From Bdellovibrio bacteriovorus str. Tiberius (GTDB lineage: Bacteria > Bdellovibrionota > Bdellovibrionia > Bdellovibrionales > Bdellovibrionaceae), in the NCBI RefSeq assembly GCF_000317895.1, contig NC_019567.1, forward strand, positions 3,906,001 through 3,970,000: 64,000 nt of DNA. The letters run 5' to 3'. Shown piece after piece: positions 2 to 11,679 of this stretch (position 1 is the stretch's first letter; each line of letters starts with the position of its first letter). Both the position numbers and the translations under genes were made by a program. The notes under the pieces are model-generated. The model was not told the origin of the DNA and searched no databases. It worked only from the letters and a program-made list of their open reading frames with translations.

Positions 2-124
2 TTTTATTTAGTAAAGCGCGAGAGAAATGGTTTACCAAAGTGGATTTCCGAACAACAATGGCAGATGAAAGAGATTCGAAAAATCTCTCCTGACTTTGTC
101 CTGTTGGAATTCACAAGACCATGA
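2..124 (+). CDS. C-terminal fragment of an unidentified protein (cut by window start)
   Basis: An open frame runs from base 2 to a TGA at 122-124 and gives about 40 residues ending in LLEFTRP. The composition (charged, with a short hydrophobic run, no low complexity) looks like a real protein end. Its stop overlaps the ATG of the next gene in an ATGA arrangement, the usual sign of translational coupling in a co-transcribed pair. The family cannot be named from this fragment. The neighbouring frame also stays open to a TGA near base 91, but lacks the stop/start overlap. Confidence 0.5.
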   Translation, partial: FYLVKRERNGLPKWISEQQWQMKEIRKISPDFVLLEFTRP

Positions 125-1332
125 AAGTAATTGCGACTCTTTCTTTTTTGCTGGTGACCTTCTTCCTGTACGGATTTTATCTGAATCAGTACGAACTGGC
201 TGTGGTGCCACCACAGATCACCTCACAGCATTCTTCCCGCAATCTGTATGACTATAAAGGTGTGCTGAATGTGCACACCGATCTTTCCAGCGGGTCGGCC
301 ACTTCAAGTTTTGTCATCACTTCAGCGAAACTTGCCAACCTGGATTTTATCTTTTTCACCGACTACAACATCTTCAATATTCCGACGACGTTTGAATCCT
401 ATCACGGGAACCTGCTGGTCTTTAATGCCGGCAAATACAGCTATCTGGATTCGCGTTTGATTTACTATTCTTTAAATCAGGAAAGTATCGGCGCAAATCT
501 GGGTGATGCCCAGGTGAAACTGTCCGATTTGCTGTCACAAAAAACCGGCGCCAGCAAAGACACGCTGACGATCCTGGCTCATCCGTACAAAGCGGGTTAT
601 TCCTGGTCCGGCGAAATTCCTTCAGGCCTTGATGGTTTCGAACTTTTGAACATGAAAAGTCTGATCAACCGCGCCTGGGGTGAGTCCAAGATCTCCACCA
701 TCTGGAGTCTTCTGATTTATCCATTCAATCCGCGTCTGGCATTTGTTCGACTTTACACCGAGCCCACGGATGAAATCGCACTTTTGAACAAACTCAGCCA
801 GCAGCGCAAAGTGGTGGTCTATGCCGGAACCGAAGCCTCGGCCCGTGCGATCCCGCTGGCGAATTACTTCATCCGCTTCCCAAGCTACAAACGCAGCTTT
901 GAATTCATGAGCAATCACGTGCTGCTGAAATCCGAACTGACGGGAAGTTTCAACAGTGACCGCACCAAGATTTTCAATGCGATTAAAAACGGAAGCTTCT
1001 ATATCGCGCTGGACACTTTGGGTGATCCAAAAGGATTTTCAGCCACCATCGAAGACGGTAATCACAGTCACATGATGGGCTCGGAAGTGAAGTTCAGCAA
1101 AAACATGAGTCTGAAAGTGATTCTGCCTGCGAAGCCTCAGGACTTTTTTGAAATCATGATCATCAAAGACGGTGAAGTGGTGGCAAGAAAGAATGATCCA
1201 GAACCGGTATTTGAAATCAAAGAGCCGGGTACTTATCGGGTGCAGGTGCGAGTCAGCCCGATGCTGCCAATCCCGGACGCCAAAAAATGGATCACCTGGA
1301 TTTACACCAATCCGTTCTACGTTCGCCCTTAA
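121..1332 (+). CDS. Membrane-anchored PHP-domain-like protein with altered metal motifs
   Basis: 403 residues. An N-terminal hydrophobic segment (about residues 3-20) should anchor or export the protein. The next region resembles the PHP (polymerase and histidinol phosphatase) fold: a VLNVHT motif near residues 48-53, FFTDYN near 78-83 and ILAHP further on. Canonical PHP enzymes have HxH in motif I and TDHN in motif II. Here the first His is Asn50 and the motif II His is Tyr82, so the metal site is incomplete and catalysis is doubtful. The last 90 or so residues look beta-rich and may be a separate domain. The start overlaps the stop of the preceding frame (ATGA), and the stop overlaps that of the convergent ferredoxin gene. 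Substrate unknown; family call is moderate. Confidence 0.7.
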   Translation: MKVIATLSFLLVTFFLYGFYLNQYELAVVPPQITSQHSSRNLYDYKGVLNVHTDLSSGSATSSFVITSAKLANLDFIFFTDYNIFNIPTTFESYHGNLLVFNAGKYSYLDSRLIYYSLNQESIGANLGDAQVKLSDLLSQKTGASKDTLTILAHPYKAGYSWSGEIPSGLDGFELLNMKSLINRAWGESKISTIWSLLIYPFNPRLAFVRLYTEPTDEIALLNKLSQQRKVVVYAGTEASARAIPLANYFIRFPSYKRSFEFMSNHVLLKSELTGSFNSDRTKIFNAIKNGSFYIALDTLGDPKGFSATIEDGNHSHMMGSEVKFSKNMSLKVILPAKPQDFFEIMIIKDGEVVARKNDPEPVFEIKEPGTYRVQVRVSPMLPIPDAKKWITWIYTNPFYVRP

Positions 1333-8038: not shown

Positions 8039-8685
8039 AGGTCAGTTACCTGTGCATCTTTTGGCGGTTGATATTTGAACAGTTTCTTATTTTCTTTTTT
8101 CAGGAACTTCACATCGGAAAACTTCATGGTGGTCAGGTTTCCGATATCGTCCAGGTAGGAAATCGTCTGCAGCGTGTTGTCCTTGGACTTCACCGTCAGC
8201 TTCAGGGATTTCACGGTCAGGCCATCATTCAGCGGCTGCACTTCGATGTTGACCAGCCCCCCGTCTTTTTCCTCTTTCAGGATCTTGAAGTTTTTGTTCA
8301 GATCCTCACCCAGCAAAGAAGAAATCAGGATGTGGGACTTCGTCTTTTTGTCGACGATGCCCTTTGCCACCTGCACCGGTCCGCCGAATTCTTTTGGCGG
8401 AACCTGCACGCTCCAGATGGTTTTACCATCGAACACCAGCAGAGTTTCTTCCGGCTTGGTGTTTTCCCAGCGGAACTTTCCGTTCGCCAGATAGATCTTG
8501 CCGTCGTACTTGGTTTCTTTGCCAAGCAGTTCAGACTTCACAGTCTTTTCCACATTCATTTCCACAAGCTTTGTGGTGCGGTATTTTTTTGCGACTTTCT
8601 GAAGAGCACCGTTGCCAGTAATGGCCGCCATAGCACTCAAAGAAAACAGGAATGTCAGGACCAGGGATAAAGTCGATCTAAGCAT
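8035..8685 (-). CDS. lolA: Outer-membrane lipoprotein carrier protein LolA-like
   Basis: 216 residues from the ATG at 8685. An N-terminal signal peptide (MLRSTLSLVLTF...SAMA) is followed by a LolA-type sequence: KYDGKIYLANGKFRWE, LLVFDGKTIWSVQ, and the C-terminal SYLDDIGNLTTMKFSDVKF. LolA ferries lipoproteins across the periplasm from LolCDE to the outer membrane. The open frame extends further upstream inside comF, but the signal peptide decides the start. The gene overlaps the comF stop by eight bases and the rimO start by four, implying a tightly coupled operon. Confidence 0.85.
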   Translation of the reverse strand: MLRSTLSLVLTFLFSLSAMAAITGNGALQKVAKKYRTTKLVEMNVEKTVKSELLGKETKYDGKIYLANGKFRWENTKPEETLLVFDGKTIWSVQVPPKEFGGPVQVAKGIVDKKTKSHILISSLLGEDLNKNFKILKEEKDGGLVNIEVQPLNDGLTVKSLKLTVKSKDNTLQTISYLDDIGNLTTMKFSDVKFLKKENKKLFKYQPPKDAQVTDL

Positions 8686-9352
8686 GCGGGTTTTGTAGCA
8701 TATCCGTGGACGCTCCGCAAGAGAGGCCCCTCTCAGCCAAGACCCAAATTTCAAAGTGAGGGGGACTCCCGAGCGCCAGTCGTGCGGCGCGCGCTGTAGA
8801 GCCAGTGGTAAGGATGTCGTCGACAAAGATCCACAGGATGTCTGTCGAGTTTTTAGACACCTCTGTATTTTTTTCAACCAGCTCCATCGCGATCAGGGCG
8901 CGCTCTCCCCGGTCGGACCGGCGCTGCTTCCCCGCAGAGGCTTTGCGCAAACAGGGAAAGTAAACGCCCCCCGTGTGAGCTGCCAGCGCCCGGGCAAACA
9001 ATGAAGCATGATCTTCGGCATCGGACTTCGACGGCGCGGGAACAAAGTGCAGTCTTCGCCCGGCAGCAAGGTCAGGCACATGCCGCTGCACCATCATCTG
9101 TGCAAAATGCTCCCACCCCTGCCTGTTGTACCGGCCCTTTAAACTCAGCACCAGGGCCGACAACAGATCACTTTCCCCGGGATTCCAGGAATATAGAGCC
9201 CTCAACCCCTCCTGTCTTCGGCGCGGTCGATGCGGGTAACGATTCAACACTTCATGACAGGGAACACAGAGCCCCGCCCGCACCACTTGGAACGATCCGC
9301 AATGCAGACAGGCGGACAGTCGGGTCTTGAGCATTTTCAACAAAGAATTCAT
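8678..9352 (-). CDS. comF: ComF family phosphoribosyltransferase-like protein
   Basis: 224 residues. An N-terminal zinc-ribbon-like region has the pairs CLHC and CVPC. A phosphoribosyltransferase fold follows, whose PRPP loop reads FVDDILTTGSTA. ComF proteins support DNA uptake and recombination in competent bacteria, where ComF is a cytoplasmic factor; the exact reaction is not established. It is the first gene of the comF-lolA-rimO unit and is divergent from the protein-glutaminase-like gene at 9423. The last residues overlap lolA in another frame. Confidence 0.85.
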   Translation of the reverse strand: MNSLLKMLKTRLSACLHCGSFQVVRAGLCVPCHEVLNRYPHRPRRRQEGLRALYSWNPGESDLLSALVLSLKGRYNRQGWEHFAQMMVQRHVPDLAAGRRLHFVPAPSKSDAEDHASLFARALAAHTGGVYFPCLRKASAGKQRRSDRGERALIAMELVEKNTEVSKNSTDILWIFVDDILTTGSTARAARLALGSPPHFEIWVLAERGLSCGASTDMLQNPHA

Positions 9353-9375
9353 TCTTTCGCGTCAGTGCAAATTCT

Positions 9376-9404
9376 TTGACAGTCCCTGACGGCAGGCCTA
9401 GAAC
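9376..9404 (+). promoter_or_regulatory. Sigma-70-type promoter for the protein-glutaminase-like gene
   Basis: TTGACA at 9376-9381, a 17-base spacer and TAGAAC at 9399-9404. The start site would fall about 12 bases before the ATG at 9423, with the ribosome site (GAGGGG) at once downstream, so the leader would be very short. Seen by eye only. Confidence 0.55.
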
Positions 9405-9422
9405 CGAAAGAGTGAGGGGTTT

Positions 9423-10181
9423 ATGAAGGCATTTTTCGTTTCGTTGATGATTCTGTCTGCTTCCGCCACGGCCGTGGCCGGTCTTTCTTCCATCCGACAT
9501 TCTGGTGAATCTTTTGAGTCTGCTCGTCAGCGCAGCACGCCGGTGTGGGAACTTTTTGGTCGCAACAGCTATCCTGATCGCATGAAAAAACCCATGAAAG
9601 AACTGAACATTCAGGAAATTCCGGATGTGGGTTCTTATGCAGACCTCGAACGTGAATTCAAATACGTTCGCGACACCCGCTTCATCGCCGACGCTCAGCC
9701 TTTCGCCCGCCGCCTGACCTGGATGTATCCGGACGATGGTTGTTATGCCCGCGCAGAACTTGCCGCCACTGAGCTGGTGGAACATCACTTCACCACACCA
9801 AAGAAAATTTTTGTCTTCGGAAACCTGTACGCTCCGACTGAGAACGCCCCGGGCGGCTCTGTTTCCTGGTGGTATCACGTGGCCGTGACCTACCGGGTGG
9901 GGAACGAGGTTTACGTCTTTGACCCGGCGATCAATCCTGAAAAGCCGGTCACTTTGGCTGAATGGAACAAAGCGGTGGGTGGCGAAAAAAGCCAGGTGCA
10001 ATACACCATCTGCTCACACAAGACATTTGATCCGGGTTCTGACTGCCTGAACCCCCGTGCCTTGTCTGACCAAGAGGCCCTTTCTGAACAAAAGAATTTC
10101 CTGAGCCTTGAATGGAACCGTCTGCTGGATCTGGATCGTGATCCGGAAAAAGAACTGGGTAACGAGCCGCCTTGGCTCTAG
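9423..10181 (+). CDS. Secreted protein-glutaminase-like enzyme (putative protein deamidase)
   Basis: 252 residues with an N-terminal signal peptide (to about ATAVAG, residue 20). The domain resembles bacterial protein-glutaminases, papain-like enzymes that deamidate glutamine side chains of proteins. A Cys-His-Asp triad is visible: Cys107 in DDGCYARAE, His152 in SWWYHVAV and Asp167 in VFDPAIN, in the order and approximate spacing known for the family. The gene has a strong ribosome site and its own promoter candidate. It converges on rlmH with stops overlapping by four bases. Secretion to the periplasm or beyond suggests action on envelope or prey proteins (inference). The substrate is unknown. 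Confidence 0.72.
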   Translation: MKAFFVSLMILSASATAVAGLSSIRHSGESFESARQRSTPVWELFGRNSYPDRMKKPMKELNIQEIPDVGSYADLEREFKYVRDTRFIADAQPFARRLTWMYPDDGCYARAELAATELVEHHFTTPKKIFVFGNLYAPTENAPGGSVSWWYHVAVTYRVGNEVYVFDPAINPEKPVTLAEWNKAVGGEKSQVQYTICSHKTFDPGSDCLNPRALSDQEALSEQKNFLSLEWNRLLDLDRDPEKELGNEPPWL

Positions 10182-10648
10182 ATATTGTGATACGGGATTT
10201 TTTTGATGATCGTAAAGGCGCGGTAGATTTGCTCTAAACTCATCGCCTGGGCCATCAGATGATTCATCACCATCGGCGACAAAGCCACCTTCAGGTCCGC
10301 ACGTTTGCGGACCTCTTCATTGACTCCAAAAGCACCGCCAATAATGAAAATCGCGCGCTTCTTGGAGCTTCCCAGAATGTTTTCCACTTTTTTTGAAAAT
10401 TGAATCGAATCCAGCACCGAGCCGCGCTCGTCAAAAAGCACGACATAGTCATCACTGTTGATATTTTTAAGGATCAGTTCGGATTCTTCGTTGCGCTTGA
10501 AGTCCGCGTCTTCACGCGCGGACTTTTTCGCCTTTAAGGACTGGATATCGAAGGGAATGAAGAAGGAAATCTTCTTCTTGTACAACTCGCTGACCTCGTC
10601 TGCCCAGGCTTCCTTGGCCGTCGCGAGGTTGTACAATATGAACTTCAT
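10178..10648 (-). CDS. rlmH: 23S rRNA (pseudouridine1915-N3) methyltransferase
   Basis: 156 residues, the normal length of this SPOUT methyltransferase. The SAM-binding knot region reads FIIGGAFGVNEEV, and the C-terminal signature reads LEQIYRAFTIIKKIPYHN, close to the family consensus EQiYRA...YH. It methylates pseudouridine 1915 in helix 69 of 23S rRNA as a dimer on assembled ribosomes. It ends the rplU-rpmA-obg-nadD/rsfS-rlmH cluster, two bases after the preceding stop, an order common in bacteria. Confidence 0.92.
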   Translation of the reverse strand: MKFILYNLATAKEAWADEVSELYKKKISFFIPFDIQSLKAKKSAREDADFKRNEESELILKNINSDDYVVLFDERGSVLDSIQFSKKVENILGSSKKRAIFIIGGAFGVNEEVRKRADLKVALSPMVMNHLMAQAMSLEQIYRAFTIIKKIPYHNI

Positions 10649-10650
10649 GA

Positions 10651-11679
10651 TTACTGCTCGCCCTTGCCAACATAAGGATCTTTCAATCCCATGTCTTTAC
10701 CTTGTCTCCACAGGTTTTCCAGGCTGTATTCCTGGCGAACGAAGTCGTAGAAGACGTGGATGATCAAAGAACCGTAATCGACAAGAACCCAGCGGCCCTC
10801 ATCCACACCCTCGATGCTTTGCGGGTGAACGTTGTATTCCTCTTTCACCGCCATCACGATGTTTTCCGCCATCGCCGCCGCATGACGGGTGGAGGTACCG
10901 GAAGCGATCAAAGTGTATTCGCTTGGAGCCGACATGGAAGTCAGATCAAAACCACGAACGTTGATGCCTTTTTTCGCAAACAAAACATTCGCGCAGAATT
11001 CAGCGAACTTGGTGTAGTCCCCGATACGGTCGCCCAGATTGCGGTAAAGTTTGTGTTCTTTGATGTAGGATTCAACAGACAACGGCAGGTATTTTTCAAC
11101 CGGTTTGCCGGAACGAAGCCATTTACGAACTTCACTGGAGGAAACTTCCACATCACGCAAAGTGATGAACTGGATGTTACGGCCGGTGTTCAGCTCAATA
11201 AAGTTGAAATCAAATTCTGCAACCAATGGCTTCAGGAAGCCTGGCATCTCTTCCAGGGATTCCGGCATGTCGTAACCCGGGCGGGTTGTGACAATCAGAT
11301 TCGCCTCAGTCAGGATCTTTTGATAGTCCTTCCACTGAGCCAGCTCTTCAAACTTGTCAGCACCCACGACAAGGTACAGATCATTGGCGTCGTAGGATTT
11401 GCGCAGGTTCATCACGGTATCAATCGTGTAGCTCATGCCACCGCGTTTGATCTCCTGATCATCCACGAAGTAAGTTTCACCGTACTGAGCAAACGCCAGG
11501 CGAGTCAGTTCCACACGCTGTTCAGGCGTTGGACCTTCCACCGGAGTTTTCAGAGGATTCTGAGCCGCAGGCAGGATGTGAACTTTGCCCAAACCGGCTT
11601 TTTTCGCCACGGTTTGGATTGCGTTGATGTGACCCATGTGTGGAGGGTTGAAACTGCCTCCGAAAATACCTATTTTCAT
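10651..11679 (-). CDS. nadD: NadD-RsfS fusion: nicotinate-nucleotide adenylyltransferase plus ribosome silencing factor
   Basis: 342 residues in one open frame. Residues 1 to about 210 are NadD: the nucleotidyltransferase motif GGSFNPPHMGH at the N-terminus, and VSSSEVRKWLRSG with PLSVESYIKEHKLY near the domain end. NadD adenylylates nicotinate mononucleotide. Residues of roughly 222-342 are RsfS/RsfA (DUF143): GTSTRHAAAMAENI, VLVDYGSLIIHVF and YSLENLW. RsfS binds L14 and blocks subunit joining in starvation. In most genomes the two genes are neighbours, here they are joined with no stop between them. The start overlaps the obg stop by one base. Confidence 0.9.
   Translation of the reverse strand: MKIGIFGGSFNPPHMGHINAIQTVAKKAGLGKVHILPAAQNPLKTPVEGPTPEQRVELTRLAFAQYGETYFVDDQEIKRGGMSYTIDTVMNLRKSYDANDLYLVVGADKFEELAQWKDYQKILTEANLIVTTRPGYDMPESLEEMPGFLKPLVAEFDFNFIELNTGRNIQFITLRDVEVSSSEVRKWLRSGKPVEKYLPLSVESYIKEHKLYRNLGDRIGDYTKFAEFCANVLFAKKGINVRGFDLTSMSAPSEYTLIASGTSTRHAAAMAENIVMAVKEEYNVHPQSIEGVDEGRWVLVDYGSLIIHVFYDFVRQEYSLENLWRQGKDMGLKDPYVGKGEQ

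What the first reader, a model, noticed from the sequence alone, without database searches (positions are those of the whole stretch)
9423..10181. Predicted secreted protein-glutaminase in a predatory bacterium
Signal peptide plus Cys107-His152-Asp167 in a protein-glutaminase-like context. Such enzymes deamidate Gln side chains of target proteins. A secreted version with its own promoter may modify prey or self envelope proteins.
Basis: partly seen in the sequence, partly recalled or inferred. Interest (0 to 1): 0.55.

Follow-up and report, generated by a model that had tools for sequence, protein, structure and literature searches.

The report
Secreted protein-glutaminase conserved across Bdellovibrio
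The gene encodes an exported enzyme that very probably turns glutamine into glutamate on other proteins; nearly every Bdellovibrio predator examined carries it at the same place in its genome, and close relatives occur in Legionella, so it may be a shared tool for living inside other cells.

Summary
Window 9423-10181 (+) is a real 252-aa gene with a signal peptide. It matches Pfam Gln_deamidase_2 at 112 bits (cut-off 25), and Cys107, His152 and Asp167 fall on the published protein-glutaminase triad. An AlphaFold model (pLDDT 93.7) has protein-glutaminases as its six best Foldseek matches. The enzyme class is well supported; the target (prey or self) is untested.
New here: it belongs to a distinct "type A" clade without the ~110-residue propeptide, with an N-terminal S-[ASPQ]-x-R motif, a Cys pair and a C-terminal PPW tail. 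Type A lies beside comF in 22 of 24 Bdellovibrio genomes, under purifying selection (dN/dS 0.04), with a promoter-like element unlike the attack-phase motif. In Legionella 11 of 45 genomes have it whole, 2 broken; a probable L. pneumophila member was 101.8-fold higher in wild-type than in type II secretion mutant supernatant. Structural comparison suggests that the mature N-terminus covers the catalytic cleft (inference). New variant of a known kind, moderate interest.

The parts
9376..9381 (+). -35-like element TTGACA of a conserved promoter-like region
   Evidence: aligned upstream regions of 10 orthologues; TTTGAC-N14..20-CTANAA in 16 of 22 syntenic orthologues, 0 of 32 other PF18626 loci, 7 of 11000 mononucleotide shuffles
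9399..9404 (+). -10-like element TAGAAC, 17 bases after the -35-like element
   Evidence: CTTTGACA-N15..17-CCTAGAA occurs once in the whole genome
9414..9419 (+). probable ribosome-binding site GAGGGG
   Evidence: read; largely conserved
9423..10181 (+). type A secreted protein-glutaminase gene, 252 aa plus stop
9423..9479 (+). predicted signal peptide, residues 1-19
   Evidence: by eye; alignment of orthologues
9480..9512 (+). residues 20-30 (GLSSIRHSGES): mature N-terminus, proposed cleft-covering segment with the S-[ASPQ]-x-R motif
   Evidence: S22 and R25 both present in 64 of 73 type A rows; superposes on pro-protein-glutaminase from residue 43/44 on; a model without residues 1-30 is less sure around Cys107
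9621..10115 (+). catalytic core, residues 67-231
   Evidence: VIA alignment to 2zk9 3..170 and 2ksv; Pfam stretch 76-184
9741..9743 (+). Cys107, nucleophile
   Evidence: aligns with Cys156 of the C. proteolyticum enzyme; 73 of 73 type A rows
9876..9878 (+). His152
   Evidence: aligns with His197; 73 of 73
9921..9923 (+). Asp167
   Evidence: aligns with Asp217; 73 of 73
10011..10046 (+). Cys197 and Cys208, probable disulfide of type A
   Evidence: each 71 of 73 type A rows; disulfide inferred
10167..10175 (+). C-terminal PPW (residues 249-251), mark of type A
   Evidence: P249 in 71, P250 and W251 in 72 of 73 type A rows; W251 in 0 of 16 outgroup rows
8678..9352 (-). divergent neighbour, ComF-like
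   Evidence: name by sequence inspection (recalled family features)
10178..10648 (-). convergent neighbour, RlmH-like; overlaps the gene end by 4 bases
   Evidence: name by sequence inspection (recalled)

Best explanation
It is an exported protein-glutaminase. The Sec signal peptide is removed (inferred). The folded enzyme reaches the periplasm and is then probably moved outside by the type II secretion system (inferred from a probable Legionella relative and from gsp-like genes in this genome). There Cys107, activated by His152 and Asp167, attacks the side-chain amide of Gln residues in other proteins, releases ammonia and leaves Glu (established chemistry of the family; not shown for this protein). 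Unlike the Chryseobacterium enzyme it has no large propeptide; the first ten or so residues of the mature chain appear to lie over the catalytic cleft and would act as a short built-in guard, relieved by proteolysis or by competing substrate (inferred). The gene is a single-gene unit with a housekeeping-type promoter-like element rather than the attack-phase FliA motif, so I expect it to work while the predator grows inside prey, loosening and solubilising prey proteins for digestion (inferred, about 45%).
For: PF18626 112 bits against cut-off 25. Triad maps exactly on Cys156/His197/Asp217. Foldseek: all 6 matches under E 0.001 are protein-glutaminase chains; VIA Z 14.7-16.1 for five protein-glutaminase entries against 7.0 for the next, NTAQ1. 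Triad intact in 73 of 73 type A and 16 of 16 other family rows, 63 of 63 type A rows after collapsing at 90% identity. Purifying selection, dN/dS 0.041 and 0.044, close to nadD, below comF. Type A in 22 of 24 genus genomes, beside lolA-comF in all 22 and followed by rlmH-nadD in the 21 whose contig goes on. Secretion: a 'glutaminase domain-containing protein' 101.8-fold higher in wild-type than T2SS-mutant supernatant of L. pneumophila (PMC12239567, passages); the five Legionella genomes checked hold one PF18626 gene each, the type A one. A GspC-like hit, and a weak GspK-like hit 11 kb away on the same strand, in this genome. Guard segment.
Against: No activity, secretion or expression data for the Bdellovibrio protein. 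Identity to the characterised Chryseobacterium enzyme is only 24-26% over the aligned part and the NCBIfam equivalog cut-off is missed by far (56.7 of 250 bits), so specificity (Gln in proteins, free peptides, or something else) may differ. The guard reading rests on end points of structural alignments (rmsd 3.5-4) and on confidence changes, not on coordinates; in 8 of 73 rows the residue at the proposed pocket position is Gln, which does not suit a simple inhibitor. The promoter element is absent, as written, from 6 of 22 orthologues, and in the twelve not used to draw it up it is in only 6. That the L. pneumophila protein in the paper is a type A member is an inference. GspK-like hits also ring in 8 of 14 control genomes, unrelated ones among them.
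Confidence: 0.75

Rival explanations
1. A papain/transglutaminase-like cysteine enzyme of another reaction: protease, peptidase or transglutaminase acting on peptides or peptidoglycan, with the glutaminase name only by descent.
For: The same triad and fold family serve proteases and acyl-transferases: VIA lists NTAQ1, LapG protease, PMT, SseI and transglutaminases at Z about 4-7. Type A has invariant residues of its own (R97, W100, E230: 0 of 16 in the outgroup; R83: 2 of 16).
Against: The protein-glutaminase entries stand at Z 14.7-16.1, twice the next fold; R110, W149, H152, D167-P168 and W181 are the same in 73 of 73 type A and 16 of 16 outgroup rows (the 27 rows from genus genomes had passed a motif filter for GC..R, H.A and DP, and two genus loci that failed it, L054 and L057, have another residue in place of the Arg).
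Confidence: 0.15
2. A periplasmic housekeeping enzyme of the predator's own envelope, not an exoenzyme aimed at prey.
For: Fixed place and strong purifying selection, like a core gene; housekeeping-type promoter-like element.
Against: Absent from 2 of 24 genus genomes and patchy outside the genus (11 of 42 other genomes of the family hold it, one of these split over two frames); a probable relative is exported through the T2SS in Legionella (PMC12239567); one relative is fused to FG-GAP repeats (L102), which I recall as typical of surface proteins.
Confidence: 0.3
3. A nutritional exoenzyme only: it frees ammonia and makes proteins soluble for proteases, with no specific target.
For: Characterised relatives deamidate plant proteins such as gluten that they would not meet in nature (PMC13139226 passages).
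Against: Nothing direct; strong conservation of private N- and C-terminal parts in type A would suit either view.
Confidence: 0.4

Closest known systems
Protein-glutaminase of Chryseobacterium proteolyticum (PDB 2zk9, 2ksv, 3a54-3a56; NCBIfam NF040782)
   Same: fold, Cys-His-Asp triad in register, secreted
   Different: 24-26% identity; no ~110-residue propeptide, only about 47 residues between predicted cleavage and core; extra Cys pair; PPW tail
Flavobacterium sp. 316 protein-glutaminase FBPG (PDB 8z3i)
   Same: best fold match, Z 16.1 over 173 residues
   Different: 19% identity; the part like ours begins at about residue 118 of 312, so it has a longer N-terminal region
L. pneumophila 'glutaminase domain-containing protein' ABXK18_RS08370 (PMC12239567)
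   Same: probably type A (inferred); T2SS-dependent in culture supernatant
   Different: not assayed as an enzyme in the passages read; its sequence was not compared here
Type B paralogue in the same genome (L002:1255-2058)
   Same: PF18626, signal-like N-terminus, triad conserved
   Different: different N- and C-terminal parts, outside the type A clade

Membership tests
Pfam PF18626 Gln_deamidase_2 | score over the curated cut-off (25 bits) | tested here: met
   112 bits, E 2e-32, profile 2-105 of 106
Pfam PF18626 Gln_deamidase_2 | catalytic Cys, His, Asp in register with the solved enzyme | tested here: met
   C107/H152/D167 on C156/H197/D217
Pfam PF18626 Gln_deamidase_2 | protein-glutaminase fold | tested here: met
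   model pLDDT 93.7; Z 15.6, rmsd 2.7, 153 residues on 2zk9
NCBIfam NF040782 PG_glutam_Chrys (equivalog) | score over the equivalog cut-off (250 bits) | tested here: not met
   56.7 bits
Chryseobacterium-type pre-pro-protein-glutaminase | propeptide of about 108-118 residues | tested here: not met
   core begins at residue 67; predicted cleavage after residue 19 (by eye) leaves about 47 residues; propeptide sizes from passages of PMC9396377 and the listed abstract of PMC6132073
EC 3.5.1.44 protein-glutamine glutaminase | releases ammonia from protein-bound Gln | not testable with these tools
   needs purified protein
Type A clade (defined here) | R83, R96, R97, W100, E230 and C-terminal PPW | tested here: met
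   clade support SH-aLRT 100
NTAQ1 N-terminal Gln amidohydrolase | fold and triad of NTAQ1 | tested here: inconclusive
   Z 7.0, 131 residues, 10% identity: related fold, far weaker match

The most novel reading that the evidence does not exclude
Type A is a self-guarded class of protein-deamidating exoenzyme shared by bacteria that live inside or consume other cells (Bdellovibrio, Legionella and, from recall of its lifestyle, the phagocytic planctomycete Uabimicrobium). The mature N-terminus S-[ASPQ]-x-R sits in the enzyme's own catalytic cleft in place of a removable propeptide. Most members hold Ala at the pocket position (48 of 73 rows), where the Chryseobacterium pro-enzyme, as I recall, also has Ala; eight hold Gln and could deamidate themselves, so that the guard would be a one-way chemical switch.
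Probability: 0.18. Interest if true: 0.68.

Novelty: new variant of a known kind. Interest (0 to 1): 0.5.

Why it matters
To my knowledge (recalled) little is known of the enzymes that Bdellovibrio turns on prey proteins other than proteases. A nearly universal, syntenic, exported deamidase gives one gene to knock out and one clear assay. The link to a probable T2SS exoprotein of Legionella suggests a shared tool for intracellular or intra-prey life. A protein-glutaminase without a large removable propeptide would also interest food enzymology, where propeptide removal is a production step (PMC13139226, passages).

Tried and rejected
Phages: no tblastn match in 50,697 phage records and none of 31 candidate stretches in viral contigs confirmed; plasmids: one match, of the core only, in 72,556 records. 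So not a phage gene on this evidence. Rfam: nothing in 8500-11000. The minus-strand ORF 9252-10001 over the gene was taken as a shadow, because the plus frame has the profile match and dN/dS 0.04.

Direction of transfer between Bdellovibrionota and Legionella: the quick tree nests one Legionella clade inside Bdellovibrionota rows, but an AU test on 69 of the 89 rows (two long branches, eight near copies and ten outgroup rows left out) does not reject a single Bdellovibrionota clade (p 0.242). I make no claim of direction.

Literature, all in the held PMC library: no paper with 'protein-glutaminase' and 'Bdellovibrio', or with 'protein glutaminase', 'deamidat' and 'predatory'; 'Bdellovibrio' with 'deamidase' gives one database paper; 'Gln_deamidase_2' gives only PMC10318531. 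Guessed HD100 locus tags Bd3838-Bd3843 give none (the tags are a guess from gene order). 'Glutaminase' has no occurrence in the main texts of PMC12546842, PMC12622784, PMC2797640, PMC3539863 and PMC7174725. The paper on the pro-enzyme structure (Hashizume 2011) is not held; that Ala47 of its propeptide sits over the pocket is recalled, backed here only by the PDB title 'A47Q1 mutant' and by the paper's title seen in reference lists.

Rows dropped before the residue counts: L062 and L090 (cut by contig ends), L112 (frame broken), L114 (unreadable stretch), L115 (incomplete; by eye it has Glu where the Asp should be). Of L116-L138 ten of 23 served as outgroup; the other 13 were not counted. The 73 type A rows hold five loci twice (once, once from the genus search); after collapsing at 90% identity 63 remain. 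In the genus set L054, L055, L057 and L058 failed my motif filter; read by eye they keep Cys, His and Asp in variant motifs.

Full report
What is there. The ORF at 9423-10181 on the plus strand encodes 252 residues. Pfam-A gives one family, PF18626 Gln_deamidase_2, E 2e-32, 112 bits against a cut-off of 25, residues 76-184. phmmer against all PDB chains gives five distinct sequences, all protein-glutaminases. In the printed alignment Cys107, His152 and Asp167 fall on residues 42, 83 and 103 of the mature Chryseobacterium enzyme, that is 156, 197 and 217, the triad given for that enzyme in PMC4214742 (passages). The NCBIfam equivalog for the Chryseobacterium enzyme is not reached, 56.7 of 250 bits.

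Structure. With an alignment of 43 rows, the window protein and 42 full-length relatives, AlphaFold2 gave pLDDT 93.7 and pTM 0.89. Foldseek found six PDB chains under E 0.001, all protein-glutaminases; the next, SseI, is at 0.038. VIA-align 2 gave Z 16.1 for 8z3i (rmsd 3.3, 173 residues), 15.6 for 2zk9 (rmsd 2.7, 153 residues) and 7.0 for the next fold, NTAQ1 (rmsd 4.1, 131 residues).

A distinct type. Relatives that match over the whole length form a clade (SH-aLRT 100) against 16 other PF18626 proteins (89 rows, quick method, 30 of 86 inner branches weakly supported). I call it type A. In 73 of 73 type A rows R83, R96, R97, W100 and E230 are present together with the triad; Cys197 and Cys208 occur in 71 of 73 each, Pro249 in 71, Pro250 and Trp251 in 72; in the 16 outgroup rows R97, W100, E230 and W251 occur in none and R83 in 2. 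After collapsing at 90% identity 63 type A rows remain and the triad is 63 of 63. The rows were chosen by likeness to this protein, so the counts describe the clade and do not test it; rows left out are listed under Tried and rejected.

Distribution. With the type A profile, matches over most of the length occur in 22 of 24 genomes of the window's genus; G002 and G018 lack one. All 22 loci have lolA-comF on one side, and the 21 whose contig goes on have rlmH-nadD on the other; L011 ends inside the gene. Outside the genus 11 of 42 genomes of the same family have one, one of them (G059) split over two frames. By PF18626 as a whole, 24 of 24 genus genomes, 83 of 143 class genomes (79 over the cut-off) and 0 of 14 control genomes match. 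The genome-contig scan (166 confirmed, best 80 kept) also brought ten Legionella isolate records, one of them with a broken frame (L112), three Legionella or Legionellaceae MAGs, Candidatus Uabimicrobium amorphum, a Silvanigrellales MAG and several gammaproteobacterial or proteobacterial MAGs. In 45 genomes of the genus of G143 (L. worsleiensis) 13 match, 11 full length and 2 broken. The 12 Legionella rows of the tree form one clade (SH-aLRT 83; 96 with the MAG L085); direction of transfer is open (AU p 0.242).

Selection and regulation. Against the orthologues of G001 and G004 dN/dS is 0.041 and 0.044; nadD 0.03-0.045, comF 0.12-0.16, rlmH 0.013-0.023, rimO (G001 only) 0.008. The gene is a lone unit: comF diverges 70 bases upstream and rlmH converges with 4 bases of overlap. 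Upstream lie TTGACA (9376-9381), 17 bases, TAGAAC (9399-9404) and GAGGGG (9414-9419). The pattern TTTGAC-N-CTANAA occurs in 16 of 22 syntenic orthologues, in 0 of 32 other PF18626 loci (paralogues and loci of other genera) and in 7 of 11000 mononucleotide shuffles. I drew it from an alignment of ten orthologues, which all match; of the other twelve 6 match. The consensus scan had found nothing, since it demands T at the last place of the -10. The element is unlike the attack-phase FliA motif TTAAG-N16-CCGATA (PMC3627812, passages), so growth-phase or constitutive expression is the better guess.

Export. In L. pneumophila a 'glutaminase domain-containing protein' (ABXK18_RS08370) stands first in a table of signal-bearing exoproteins, 101.8-fold higher in wild-type than in T2SS-mutant supernatant (PMC12239567, passages). 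The five Legionella genomes checked (G143, G145, G180, G155, G150) have a single PF18626 gene, and in each it is the type A one, so the protein is probably type A; G180, one contig of 3,379,205 bases, may be L. pneumophila, but it is unnamed. The window's genome has a GspC-like hit (33.4 bits) and a weak GspK-like hit 11 kb away on the same strand. PMC10318531 (passage) notes Dot/Icm genes near Gln_deamidase_2 genes.

The N-terminal segment. Characterised enzymes have 108-118 residue propeptides (PMC9396377, passages). Here the core starts at residue 67 and the mature chain at about 20. In the full model residues 20 and 19 superpose on residues 44 and 43 of the pro-enzyme (3a56, 3a54); in a model without residues 1-30 the match begins with residue 31 on 65 and 64. 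If ungapped, residue 23 lies on Ala47 of the propeptide, which (recalled) sits over the pocket and whose change to Gln gave an enzyme-substrate complex. Without residues 1-30 block pLDDT falls at 31-40 from 92 to 59, at 41-50 from 76 to 69, at 91-100 from 97 to 89, at 101-110 (with Cys107) from 96 to 84, at 131-150 from 97 to 93 and 91, and at 221-250 from 97, 98, 96 to 93, 93, 89; elsewhere by 4 or less. Some fall next to the cut would be expected anyway. Position 22 is Ser in 65, position 25 Arg in 69, and position 23 is Ala 48, Ser 9, Gln 8, Pro 6 of 73. I read this as a short guard over the cleft. It is an inference without coordinates, and the eight Gln rows argue against a simple inhibitor.

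Verdict. Enzyme class is well supported, export well founded but not shown, target and timing not known. The protein is a PF18626 member but not a Chryseobacterium-type pre-pro enzyme: new variant of a known kind.

Noticed in passing
L002:1255-2058 (G000:C1 about 2935559-2936362): Second PF18626 protein in the same genome (type B, 107.6 bits; motif GCEERAH, KYHVA, MDPS), between genes that look by eye like PrpF and an MFS transporter; relatives in several other genus genomes.
   Followed up: partly
L148:471-1253 (G000:C1 about 1449270-1450052): Third, weak relative (19.6 bits, under the cut-off) with a signal-like N-terminus and GFCFGRA...WQFHV...VDTF; a 413-residue relative in L058. Possibly a third exported deamidase-like family.
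   Followed up: partly
L105:1351-2742, L107:3221-4612, L108:44-1246: Gammaproteobacterial MAG proteins that look by eye like two type A-like halves; the N-terminal half has lost Cys and His, the C-terminal half keeps the triad.
   Followed up: no
L102:3467-5371: Type A domain fused to FG-GAP repeats (PF01839, PF13517).
   Followed up: no
L112, G163:C84:22169-22923, G184:C44:228-1003: Broken type A genes in Legionella; intact copies exist in other genomes. Not mended.
   Followed up: no
L121, L122, L125, L136: PF18626 inside open frames of 1066-1185 residues in a Rhodospirillales genome, two Reyranella and a Nostoc; the rest of L121 and L136, the two scanned, has no Pfam match at E 0.01.
   Followed up: no
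window 9366-9375: GCAA just upstream of the -35-like element, the same in the ten aligned orthologues; could be a regulator site.
   Followed up: no
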